A DNA stretch of 64,000 nt from Primulina eburnea. Taxonomy: Eukaryota > Streptophyta > Magnoliopsida > Lamiales > Gesneriaceae. The stretch covers positions 36,001-100,000 of the forward strand of contig NW_027330892.1 in the NCBI RefSeq assembly GCF_022965805.1, in the 5' to 3' direction. Shown in pieces: positions 1 to 64,000 of this stretch. The notes under the pieces were generated by a model that ran no database searches, was not told where the DNA came from, and worked only from the letters and a program-made list of their open reading frames with translations. How positions within the stretch are numbered: the first letter of the stretch is position 1; each line of letters opens with the position of its first letter. A program made the translations under genes and the position numbers.

Positions 1-431
1 ATCCGTAATGTTTGAAGCATCATCGGTTTCATGACAAGCTATAAAATGTGCCATCTTAGAGAATCTATCCACAACTACAAAAATAGAATCCCTCCTCTTC
101 TTAGGCCTAGGCAACTCCAAAATAAAGTCCAGAGAAATGTCAATCCAAGTTCTTTTTAAGAATAGCACGCAAAAGTGTTTCCAAAGTTCTATTGACAACT
201 TCAGTTTGTCCATTCGTTTGAGGATGACAAGTAGTAGAAAACAACAATTTTGTGCCAAGTTTAGCCCATAAAGTCTTCCAGAAGTAACTCAAGAATTTAA
301 CATCGCGACCAGAAACAATAGTCCTAGGCATGCCAAGCAACCTAGCTTCTTCTCTAAAGAACAAATCCGCAATGTTTGAAGCATCATAGGTTTTATGACA
401 AGCTATAAAATGTGCCATCTTAAAGAATCTA

Positions 432-450
432 TCCACAACAACCCCAAAAT
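432..450 (-). repeat. Deletion junction in a 327-bp monomer variant
   Basis: Here CCACAACAAC runs directly into CCCAAAATAAAG. Standard monomers have 37 further bases between these points (the tract covering AAAATAGAATCC to CCTAGGC). The repeat CAAC at both edges suggests deletion through short homology. The same junction recurs near 1128-1146, 31552-31570 and 63109-63127. Confidence 0.85.
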
Positions 451-2514
451 AAAGTCCATAGAAATGTCAATCGAAGTTCTTTTTAAGAATAGCACGCAAA
501 AGTGTTCCCAAAGTTATATTGACAACTTCAGTTTGTCCATCCGTTTGAGGATGACAAGTAGTAGAAAACAACAATTTTGTGCCAAGTTCAGCCCATAAAG
601 TCTTCCAAAAGTAACTCAAGAATTTAACATCGCGACCAGAAACAATAGTCCTAGGCATGCCAAGCAACCTAGCGACTTCTCTAAAGAACAAATCCGCAAT
701 GTTTGAAGCATCATCGGTTTTATGACAAGCTATAAAATGTGCCGTCTTAGAGAATCTATCCACAACAACAAAAATAGAATACATCCCCTTCTTAGTCCTA
801 GGCAACCCCAAAATAAAGTCCATAGAAATGTCAATCCAAGTTCTTTTTAAGAATAGCACGCAAAAGTGTTCTCAAAGTTCTATTGACAACTTCAGTTTGT
901 CCATCCGTTTGAGGATGACAAGTAGTAGAAAAAAACAATTTTGTGCCAAGTTTAGCCCGTAAATTATTCCAAAAGTAACTCAAAAATTTAACATTGCGAC
1001 GAGAAACAATAGTCCTAGGCATGCCATGCAACCTAAAGACTTCTCTAAAGAACAAATCCGCAATGTTTGAAGCATCATCGGTTTTATGACAAGCTATAAA
1101 ATGTGCCATCTTAGAGAATCTATCCACAACAACCCCAAAATAAAGTCCATAGAAATGTCAATCCAAGTTCTTTTTAAGAATAGCACGCAAAAGTGTTCCC
1201 AAAGTTATATTGACAACTTCAGTTTGTCCATCCGTTTGAGGATGACAAGTAGTAGAAAACAACAATTTTGTGCCAAGTTTTTCAGCCCATAAAGTCTTCC
1301 AAAAGTAACTCAAGAATTTAACATCGCGACCCGAAACAATAGTCCTAGGCATGCCAAGCAACCTAGCGACTTCTCTAAAGAACAAATCCGCAATGTTGAA
1401 TCATCATCGGTTTTATGACATGCTATAAAATGTGCTATCTTAGAGAATCTATCCACAACAACAAAAATAGAATCACTCCCCTTCTTAGTCCTAGGCAACC
1501 CCAAAATAAAGTCCATAGAAATGTCAATCCAAGTTCTTTTTAAAAATAGCACGCAAAGGTGTTCCCAAAGTTCTATTGACAACTTCAGTTTGTCCATCAG
1601 TTTGAGGATGACATGTAGTAGAAAACAACAATTTTGTGCCAAGTTTAGCCCATAAATTATTCCAAAAGTAACTCAAAAATTTAACATTACGACGAGAAAA
1701 CAATAGTCCTAAGCATGCCATGCAACCTAGCGACTTCTCTAAAGAACAAATCCGCAATGTTTGAAGCATCATCGGTTTCATGACAAGCTATAAAATGTGC
1801 CATCTTAGAGAATCTATCCACAACAACAAAAATAGAATCCCTCCTCTTCTTAGGCCTAGGCAACCCCAAACTAAAGTCCATAGAAATGTCAATCCAAGTT
1901 CCTTTTAAGAATAGCACGCAAAAGTGTTCCCAAAGTTCTATGGACAACTTCAGTTTGTCCATCCGTTTGAGGATGACAAGTAGTAGAAAACAACAATTTT
2001 GTGCCAAGTTTAGCCCATAAATTATTCCAAAAGTAACTTAAAAATTTAACATTGCGACGAGAAACAATAGTCCTAGGCATGCCATGCAACCTAGCGACTT
2101 CTCTAAAGAACAAATCCGCAATGTTTGAAGCATCATCGGTTTCATGACAAGCTATAAATGTGCCATCTTAGAGAATCTATCCACAACAACAAAAATAGAA
2201 TCCCTCCTCTTCTTAGGCCTAGGCAACCCCAAACTAAAGTCCATAGAAATGTCAATCCAAGTTCCTTTTAAGAATAGCACGCAAAAGTGTTCCCAAAGTT
2301 CTATGGACAACTTCAGTTTGTCCATCCGTTTGAGGATGACAAGTAGTAGAAAACAACAATTTTGTGCCAAGTTTAGCCCATAAATTATTCCAAAAGTAAC
2401 TTAAAAATTTAACATTGCGACGAGAAACAATAGTCCTAGGCATGCCATGCAACCTAGCGACTTCTCTAAAGAACAAATCCGCAATGTTTGAAGCATCGTC
2501 GGTTTCATGACAAG

Positions 2515-61251: not shown

Positions 61252-62012
61252 AATTGTATTCAAGCATGTATGATCAGTGTGATATTCAGATATGAATATG
61301 ATTATACTTTGTTTACATATTGATATTCATTGCATTTAAGATAGGAGAGTCTTTGACAGGCATTGTCAAATAGCTAGACGTTTCGGTGTATCTCAGCATA
61401 GGAGTAGGTATTACTCTTATTGCCGCCGTTGATACAGCTCAGACCGAAGTCTAGGAATGAGACGTTCATTACCCCGATTGGAGGGTAGGTAGTGACGTCT
61501 TATTCACACCGGGATCCCTAGAGTTCTAGTCGAGTCGAGTCCAGACATGGTTTGATTCGCATTGCATTGCATGTGCATATGATGTCATTCATGATAACAT
61601 GTTTCATGTTTAATTGATTATATGCATGTATACATGTTTATACTGGGATTTGTTCTCACCGGTTTTCCGGCTGTTGTTATGTCTGTATGTGTGCATAACA
61701 ACAGGTGGGGCAGGATCTGGGTCACGCAGAGGATGAGAGATGGACATAGCGTGGTGATCTCGGGCATAGCAGAAGAACTAGTAGTTGTACTTTTGGCATG
61801 TACTGTATTTAATTACTAGTTGTCGAATATGATTTGGAACCAGACATATTTGTATCTTTTGTTATAGATTATGTTGTTAATATCTATGGTGTATGCTTGA
61901 GTTATATAACATTAGAATTAATGTTAAAAGCAAAAAATTTGACCCACTTTTTATATTAATGATCCGTTTTAATCCCAAAGAAAAATATTAGAGCCCGGGT
62001 CCCCACAACAGG

Positions 62013-62087
62013 TGGTATCAGAGCCATAGGTTCTATAGCTTGAGTTAGAATAGAATGAGCGGGGTAGATCGAGTCTTCTTCCTTGCT
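62013..62087 (+). other. Element G primer-binding site and leader stub
   Basis: TGGTATCAGAGC is at 62013-62024. The GAGCGGGGTAGA and CTTCCTTGCT block is at 62057-62087. The deletion junction follows. Confidence 0.88.
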
Positions 62088-64000
62088 CAATCCAAGTTCT
62101 TTTTAAGAATAGCACGCAAAAGTGTTCCAAAAGTTATATTGACAACTTCAGTTTGTCCATCCGTTTGAGGATGACAAGTAGTAGAAAACAACAATTTTGT
62201 GCCAAGTTCAGCCCATAAAGTCTTCCAAAAGTAACTCAAGAATTTAACATTGCGACGAGAAACAATAGTCCTAGGCATGCCATGCAACCTAGCGAATTCT
62301 CTAAAGAACAAATCCGCAATATTTGAAGCATCATCGGTTTCATGACAAGCCATAAAATGTGCCATCTTAGAGAATCTATCCACAACTACAAAAATAGAAT
62401 CTCTCCTCTTCTTAGGCCTAGGCAACCCCAAACTAAAGTCCATAGAAATGTCAATCCAAGTTCTTTTTAAGAATAACACGCAAAAGTGTTACCAAAGTTT
62501 TATTGACAACTTCAGTTTGTCCATCTGTTTGAGAATGACAAGTAGTAGAAAACAACAATTTTGTGCCAAGTTTAGCCCATAAATTATTCCAAAAGTAACT
62601 CAAAAATTTAACATTGCGACGAGAAACAATAGTCCTAGGCATGCCATGCAACCTAACGACTTCTCTAAAGAACAAATCCGTAATGTTTGAAGCATCATCG
62701 GTTTCATGACAAGCTATAAAATGTGTCATCTTAGAGAATCTATCCACAACTACAAATATAGAATCCCTCCTCTTCTTAGGCCTAGGCAACTCTAAAATAA
62801 AGTCCAGAGAAATGTCAATCCAAGTTCTTTTTAAGAATAGCACGCAAAAGTGTTCCCAAAGTTCTATTGACAACTTCAGTTTGTCCATCCGTTTGAGGAT
62901 GACAAGTAGTAGAAAACAACAATTTTGTGCCAAGTTTAGCCCATAAATTATTCCAAAAGTAACTCAAAAATCTAACATTGCGACGAGAAAGAATAGTCCT
63001 AGGCATGCCATGCAACCTAGCGACTTCTCTAAAGAACAAATCCGCAATGTTTGAAGCATCATCGGTTTTATGACAAGCTATAAAATGTGTCATCTTAGAG
63101 AATCTATCCACAACAACCCCAAAATAAAGTCCATAGAAATGTCAATCCAAGTTCTTTTTAAGAATAGCACGCAAAAGTGTTCCCAAAGTTATATTGACAA
63201 CTTCAGTTTGTCCATCCGTTTGAGGATGACAAGTAGTAGAAAACAACAATTTTGTGCCAAGTTCAGCCCATAAATTCTTCCAAAAGTAACTCAAAAATTT
63301 AACATTGCGACGAGAAACAATAGTCCTAGGCATGCCATGCAACCTAGCGACTTCTCTAAAGAACAAATCCGTAATGTTTGAAGCATCATCGGTTTCATGA
63401 CAAGCTATAAAATGTGCCATCTTAGAGAATCTATCCACAACTACAAAAATAGAATCCCTCCTCTTCTTATGCCTAGGCAACTCCAAAATAAAGTCCAGAG
63501 AAATGTCAATCCAAGTTCTTTATAAGAATAGCACGCAAAAGTGTTCCCAAAGTTCTATTGACAACTTCAGTTTGTCCATCCGTTTGAGAATGACAAGTAG
63601 TAGAAAACAACAATTTTGTGCCAAGTTTAGCCCGTAAATTTTTCCAAAAGTAACTCAAAAATTTAACATTGCGACGAGAAAGAATAGTCCTAGGCATGCC
63701 ATGCAACCTAGCGAATTCTCTAAAGAACAAATCCGCAATGTTTGAAGCATCATCGGTTTCATGACAAGCCATAAAATGTGCCATCTTAGAGAATCTATCC
63801 ACAACTACAAAAATAGTATCTCTCCTCTTCTTAGGCCTAGGCAACCCCAAACTAAAGTCCATAGAAATGTCAATCCAAGTTCTTTTTAAGAATAGCACGC
63901 AAAAGTGTTACCAAAGTTTTATTGACAACTTCAGTTTGTCCATCTGTTTGAGAATGACAAGTAGTAGAAAACAACAATTTTGTGCCAAGTTTAGCCCATA
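62088..64000 (-). repeat. Satellite block 4, running off the window
   Basis: More than five monomers are present, including one with the 37-bp deletion (63109-63127) and several mixed-class monomers. The first (62088-62450) joins a class II start (SLGLPRPKKRRDS) to a class I end (FWKTLWAELG). The array is cut by the end of the window, so its full length is unknown. Confidence 0.92.

What the first reader, a model, noticed from the sequence alone, without database searches (positions are those of the whole stretch)
1..64000. A satellite made from a retrotransposon integrase core
Seen: four blocks of ~364-bp tandem repeats, about 60 copies and 22 kb, each encoding part of a Ty3/gypsy integrase on the minus strand. 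Known: plant satellites have been linked to retrotransposon LTRs and untranslated regions, and a coding-core origin seems less usual. Inference: 364 bp is about two nucleosome repeats, so the unit may suit phased chromatin. The array may be centromeric or pericentromeric.
Basis: partly seen in the sequence, partly recalled or inferred. Interest (0 to 1): 0.85.

Follow-up and report, generated by a model that had tools for sequence, protein, structure and literature searches.

The report
Satellite DNA from a retrotransposon integrase
In this plant-like genome a small piece of a jumping gene, the catalytic core of its integrase, was duplicated head to tail and grew into long repeat arrays on several chromosomes, which shows that coding parts of such elements, and not only their ends, can become satellite DNA.

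Summary
In detail: 22,071 bp of the window (about 60 units of 364 bp) is a minus-strand tandem repeat whose unit is the D,D35E catalytic core of a Ty3/gypsy integrase. The four blocks were one array, split by two LTR-retrotransposon insertions with perfect 5-bp target duplications and one LTR-like insert. The held genome (812 Mb) lists the repeat on at least 39 contigs, 7 chromosome-scale. The parental element type persists with long open frames; monomers reach 91-92% identity to its core. Sixty monomers form one clade against ten element copies, support 99. The unit junction has 3-bp microhomology and shifts the frame. The second catalytic Asp is lost in 281 of 285 monomers; pN/pS is about 1.1 against 0.035 among elements. 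It is non-coding satellite DNA. No 10-bp nucleosome periodicity was found; centromeric position is undecided. Coding-derived satellites are known (gag, LINE ORF2, CACTA transposase); an integrase-core unit was not seen in eight library searches. New variant of a known kind.

The parts
1..11615 (-). satellite block 1, about 32 units of 364 bp (two of 327 bp), open at the window's left edge
11611..11615 (.). target site duplication TATAA, left copy (right copy 30078-30082)
11616..30077 (-). inserted Tekay-like (name recalled) Ty3/gypsy element, LTRs about 1.8 kb, 99.4% identical; holds a nested plus-strand element with LTRs about 18806-20629 / 25504-27328
30078..32266 (-). satellite block 2, about 6 units; its first bases continue the monomer that block 1 ends in
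32262..32266 (.). target site duplication CCCTC, left copy (right copy 53590-53594)
32267..53589 (+). inserted Ty3/gypsy element, LTRs about 1.9 kb, 98.9% identical, holding further nested elements
53590..59957 (-). satellite block 3, about 17.5 units, with a near-identical 5-unit segmental duplication (54033-55852 and 55853-57665)
59958..62086 (+). LTR-like insert (related to the LTRs at 42288-44436 / 48378-50525 and others), no clean target duplication; about 220 bp of the monomer is missing at this junction
62087..64000 (-). satellite block 4, about 5 units; the window ends at the end of contig C362
2281..9557 (-). segmental duplications of 6, 7 and 13 units inside block 1 (97.8-99.7% identical at those lags)

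Best explanation
This is satellite DNA founded by one tandem duplication inside the integrase gene of a Ty3/gypsy element (CRM clade by recall). A 364-bp stretch, from the W-[IV]-D-I-S start of the catalytic core to the N-L past the catalytic Glu, was joined tail to head at the short homology CTT (within GAACCTT / GAACTT). The unit is 3 x 121 + 1 bp, so each repeat shifts the frame and no poly-integrase can be read. Unequal exchange and segmental duplication in steps of 5, 6, 7 and 13 units enlarged and homogenised the arrays, and copies reached at least seven chromosome-scale contigs. Later LTR retrotransposons landed in the array of this window and split it into four blocks. Shown: homology over the whole unit, one clade against the ten elements sampled, junction, frame shift, loss of the second catalytic Asp, lack of measurable protein-level selection, segmental duplications, later insertions, spread over contigs. 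Inferred: the repair route of the first duplication, unequal exchange as the motor, the means of spread between chromosomes (ectopic exchange or circular DNA), and a purely structural role in heterochromatin.
For: In-genome elements with open frames carry the same core; six monomers align over 367 bp at up to 91%, and 285 monomers at up to 92.4% over 342 bp, best to one of ten copies examined. Element edges (five copies printed) and the array junction show the microhomology. Sixty monomers from 15 sampled loci are one clade against ten elements, SH-aLRT 99. pN/pS is 1.11 (codon bootstrap 0.65-2.04) in 315 monomers, 0.035 (0.02-0.06) in ten elements; variants in at most 3 monomers give 1.02 with 11 stops. 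Satellite-specific sites shared by at least 90% of monomers: 8 synonymous, 2 nonsynonymous, one of them the second catalytic Asp, which only 4 of 285 monomers keep. Segmental duplications. Target duplications with matching monomer phase. At least 39 contigs.
Against: I did not search for intermediates (an element with two or three integrase cores in place), and none lies at the 15 array edges looked at. The direct parent copy is not identified: only ten of the 139 scored elements were compared, and the nearest is still 8-9% off. Junction microhomology is only 3 bp and could be chance. The codon bootstrap of pN/pS is wide, and the same measure in the two shifted frames of the monomers gave 0.61 and 0.87, so values near 1 carry that much noise. 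Abundance is a lower bound only.
Confidence: 0.9

Rival explanations
1. The satellite is the functional (CENH3-bound) centromere repeat of this plant, selected for about two nucleosomes per unit.
For: Long arrays in chromosome interiors, compact clusters among the listed rows on C2, C7, C10, C14 and C16, many unplaced contigs, and a parent of the CRM type by recall.
Against: Listed so far on 7 of at least 18 chromosome-scale contigs; two clusters about 8 Mb apart on C3 and a 6.6-Mb spread on C4; the parental element family itself is dispersed over all 18; no ~10-bp WW signal; no excess distance from P450 genes, P = 0.26.
Confidence: 0.2
2. A local segmental or tandem duplication of one retroelement fragment, not a satellite.
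For: Segmental duplications are visible inside the window.
Against: At least 39 contigs, 7 chromosome-scale; 441 near-full monomers in the first 12 sampled loci.
Confidence: 0.02
3. The repeats are kept as genes: an array of truncated integrases with a protein role, for example a dominant-negative core.
For: 267 of 441 near-full monomers are open over 114 codons.
Against: pN/pS about 1, +1 frame shift per unit, second catalytic Asp lost, 156 of 441 with an indel and 18 more with a stop. Open frames are expected in young, homogenised repeats.
Confidence: 0.02
4. The array grew inside a mobile element and was carried to other chromosomes by retrotransposition, as Ogre-borne repeats were in Lathyrus.
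For: Such a route is published for other satellites (PMC7004042, passages seen).
Against: Flanks differ among the 15 edges looked at; 10 of 15 look by eye like LTR ends (TG or CA) of several kinds. In tblastn with five integrase proteins, hits reaching past the core lie inside arrays, running into the next unit, or are distant integrases of 24-45% identity. Flanks were not aligned to one another systematically.
Confidence: 0.08

Closest known systems
CRM1TR and CRM4TR of maize (Sharma et al. 2013, PMC3648361; abstract and passages seen)
   Same: Tandem repeats derived wholly from centromeric Ty3/gypsy elements, locally homogenised; later LTR-retrotransposon insertions at one CRM1TR locus.
   Different: Derived from LTR and UTR; CRM1TR is confined to two neighbouring loci. 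Here the unit is coding integrase core and lies on at least seven chromosome-scale contigs.
Ogre-derived FabTR satellites of Lathyrus sativus (PMC7004042; passages seen) and PisTR-A of pea (named in PMC9659126)
   Same: Satellites founded by Ty3/gypsy elements and expanded into long arrays.
   Different: They grew from tandem repeats already present downstream of gag-pol; here a coding segment, single in the ten elements sampled, was duplicated.
Rye E3900 (gag fragment), LINE ORF2 satellites, CACTA Tnp2 satellite of Chenopodium (one section and the tables of review PMC9659126 read)
   Same: Satellite units with coding sequence of a transposable element.
   Different: Other genes and elements; no integrase-derived case is in that table, and the word integrase does not occur in its main text.
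Potato satellites St3-58, St3-238, St18, St3-294 (listed as LTR-derived in PMC9659126; original paper not read)
   Same: Satellites from Ty3/gypsy-like sequences.
   Different: Listed as LTR-derived; the unit here lies wholly within the integrase coding sequence.

Membership tests
Satellite DNA | Long head-to-tail arrays of a homogeneous unit at many genomic sites | tested here: met
Satellite DNA | No selection on protein coding | tested here: met
   pN/pS 1.11 (0.65-2.04) against 0.035 in elements; rare variants 1.02; frame shift per unit; shifted-frame controls 0.61 and 0.87
Retrotransposon-derived satellite | Unit homologous over its whole length to one part of an element in the same genome | tested here: met
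   367-bp alignments at up to 91%
Retrotransposon-derived satellite | Single origin from that element family | tested here: met
   60 monomers one clade against 10 elements, SH-aLRT 99, quick search; only ten element copies were sampled
LTR/UTR-derived satellites (CRM1TR, Ogre-derived) | Unit from LTR, UTR or pre-existing tandem repeats | tested here: not met
   unit is integrase core coding sequence only
CRM-clade parent | CRM-type reverse transcriptase and CR motif or related integrase C-terminus | tested here: inconclusive
   parts of RT and C-terminus of one element read; clade name rests on recall, no reference set was held
Centromeric satellite | CENH3 binding | not testable with these tools
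   no ChIP data
Centromeric satellite | One site per chromosome, on all chromosomes | tested here: inconclusive
   7 of at least 18 chromosome-scale contigs listed; C3 and C4 have spread sites; searches score only the best candidates

The most novel reading that the evidence does not exclude
The catalytic core of a still-present centromere-type (CRM, by recall) element, founded from a copy that had lost its second catalytic Asp, has become the centromere satellite of this plant: coding sequence of the element that targets centromeres has turned into the centromere's own DNA.
Probability: 0.15. Interest if true: 0.75.

Novelty: new variant of a known kind. Interest (0 to 1): 0.45.

Why it matters
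Where new satellites come from is an open question. Here the founding junction, the parental element family, the loss of coding constraint and the later breakage by other elements can all be read in one genome. If the single origin holds on a larger sample, it adds the integrase catalytic core to the parts of an LTR retrotransposon known to found a satellite, in a case where no LTR or pre-existing tandem repeat seems to have been needed, only a few bases of homology.

Tried and rejected
Local duplication: rejected by the spread over contigs. Retained integrase genes: rejected by pN/pS, frame shift and loss of the catalytic Asp. Sequence-encoded nucleosome phasing: no ~10-bp WW periodicity; 60 monomers lie below their shuffles. 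Centromere from gene-poor position: P450 positions (115 matches from 92 scored candidates of 560) give P = 0.26 for ten satellite positions on six chromosomes; C14, with no P450 row, was left out. A parent flank at the array edges: none seen at 15 edges; 10 of them look like LTR ends by eye. The same satellite elsewhere: 5,917 protein hits, but none of the best 120 holds any of four unit-junction strings; the search takes words from the whole query and the set is clustered, so this is weak. Species identity: not determined; one paper search on a guess led nowhere. Literature: eight searches, of which I saw the listings (40 of 48 papers, 25 of 42), and passages or sections of nine papers, gave no integrase-core satellite; subscription papers are mostly not held, so absence from print is not shown. 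The 156 of 441 near-full monomers with an indel were left out of the codon analyses; 30 indel-free monomers from three further loci were added.
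Full report
Observation. Tandem Repeats Finder reports the 364-bp unit in four blocks, with 327-bp variants. A profile of monomers gives 70 rows in the window, 66 of them satellite and all on the minus strand; the other four are integrase pieces of other Ty3/gypsy elements. The satellite covers 22,071 bp of the window and 47,164 bp of the 100-kb contig C362, of which the window is bases 36,001-100,000.

One array, not four. The block ends at 11,615 / 30,078 and 32,266 / 53,590 carry perfect 5-bp target duplications (TATAA and CCCTC), and the monomer phase continues across each insertion: profile positions 121-364 meet 1-129, and 75-364 meet 1-79, the overlap being the duplication plus a few chance matches. 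The inserts have LTR pairs 99.4% and 98.9% identical. With rates recalled from the literature (0.7-1.3 x 10^-8 per site and year) that is very roughly 0.2-0.8 million years, so the array is older. The third insert, 59,958-62,086, is LTR-like, has no clean duplication and lacks about 220 bp of the monomer.

A genomic satellite. The window's genome is held (812,487,562 bp, 1,224 contigs; species not named). Four DNA searches with dimers from different loci scored only 39 of 3,381, 34 of 4,347, 40 of 452 and 40 of 1,863 candidates, yet the listed rows name 39 different contigs (the lists are cut). Seven are chromosome-scale: C2 (25.66 Mb), C3 (33.91-34.63 and 42.3-43.7 Mb), C4 (13.2-19.8 Mb), C7 (33.26 Mb), C10 (31.11 Mb), C14 (7.23-7.45 Mb) and C16 (24.79-25.33 Mb). 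At least 18 chromosome-scale contigs exist, judging from coordinates. Twelve loci sampled first gave 441 near-full monomers, and three more loci confirmed arrays on C2, C10 and C16. Mean identity inside the twelve loci runs from 94.5% (one C4 locus) to 99.3% (C720), so some arrays are recently homogenised.

Origin. A protein search of the genome with a plant-type integrase (P0119) found elements with open frames of up to 1,688 residues, dispersed over all 18 chromosome-scale contigs (139 scored of 70,697 candidates). Ten copies were sampled. Six monomers align to their integrase core over 367 bp, best at 91% to L035 on C1, and 285 monomers reach at most 92.4% over 342 bp, again to L035. Sixty monomers from 15 loci form one clade against the ten elements (SH-aLRT 99, quick IQ-TREE search), in an unresolved fork with L035 and the group L029-L031 and L034. 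A nearer parent may exist among the copies not sampled. The family looks like the CRM clade from parts of its reverse transcriptase and integrase end; that name is recalled and was not tested against a reference set.

The founding junction. The five elements printed read GAACCTTGG at the start of the core and GAACTTAA after it; the array junction reads GAACTTGGATTGAC. The join therefore lies at a shared CTT, inside a slightly longer near-match. The unit is 364 = 3 x 121 + 1 bp, so the integrase frame shifts at each join; this explains the 170-residue open frames, which hold an out-of-frame tail followed by an in-frame core.

No coding role. Counting from the Trp that opens the core, the catalytic residues (assigned from the D,D35E spacing, recalled) are 7, 68 and 104, with 35 residues between the last two. 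Of 285 indel-free monomers, 280 keep Asp 7, 282 keep Glu 104, and only 4 keep Asp 68. Ten satellite-specific sites, shared by at least 90% of 315 monomers and absent from the ten elements, comprise 8 synonymous and 2 nonsynonymous changes, the latter being one conservative change and the loss of Asp 68; an element subgroup taken as control has 5 and 0. I infer that the lineage was under constraint until shortly before the founding, and that the founder or a very early ancestor had lost the second catalytic Asp. Since then pN/pS is 1.11 (0.65-2.04) in 315 monomers against 0.035 (0.02-0.06) in the ten elements, and rare variants give 1.02 with 55 synonymous, 200 nonsynonymous and 11 stop changes. 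The two shifted frames, which should also lie near 1, gave 0.61 and 0.87, a measure of the noise.

Amplification. In block 1 units repeat at lags of 6, 7 and 13 (97.8-99.7% identical), and in block 3 at a lag of 5 at up to 100%. That is the mark of unequal exchange or segmental duplication. How arrays reached other chromosomes is inferred only. Of 15 array edges looked at, 10 resemble LTR ends by eye, and none shows the parent element continuing.

Chromatin and centromere. Sixty sampled monomers show no ~10-bp WW periodicity above Markov shuffles. P450 gene positions do not place ten satellite positions on six chromosomes unusually far from genes (P = 0.26; C14 left out). The centromere idea stays open.

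Comparison. The maize repeats CRM1TR and CRM4TR come from LTR and UTR (PMC3648361, abstract and passages); Lathyrus satellites come from tandem repeats downstream of Ogre gag-pol (PMC7004042, passages). The review PMC9659126 (passages, one section and the tables read) lists gag, LINE ORF2 and CACTA transposase sources, with no integrase. Other papers of which passages were seen: PMC4107277, PMC8259371, PMC7290377, PMC3059260, PMC12371157 and PMC12596083. In what I saw none shows an integrase-core satellite. This is a new variant of a known kind.

Noticed in passing
45129-45571: A 221-bp tandem duplication (98% identical, 2.0 copies) inside a gag frame of a nested LTR element: a fresh duplication of coding sequence, the same kind of first step as inferred for the satellite.
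   Followed up: no
42485-42625, 48574-48714, 60102-60359: 53-bp minisatellites built on the palindrome GCGCATATGCGC inside related LTRs, in two near-identical LTRs and in the LTR-like insert.
   Followed up: no
38875-42321 and 50811-51412: Remains of an element with 602-bp LTR-like copies (97.7%), a gag match and a degraded integrase start (about 30% identical to P0119), itself split by another LTR element with LTRs 42288-44436 / 48378-50525.
   Followed up: partly
L017:502-534 (C720:97502-97534): Array orientation flips from minus to plus at this point: an inversion boundary inside a satellite array.
   Followed up: no
C362, C112, C659, C847 (contig lengths): These four unplaced contigs are exactly 100,000 bases long, which suggests that the assembly was cut at fixed steps; array lengths at contig ends are therefore lower bounds.
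   Followed up: no
169-495, 860-1186, 31286-31612, 62844-63170: A 327-bp variant unit, 37 bp short, at four places in the window; 24 of 441 near-full sampled monomers lack 37 bases. Whether it is the same deletion in all was not checked.
   Followed up: partly
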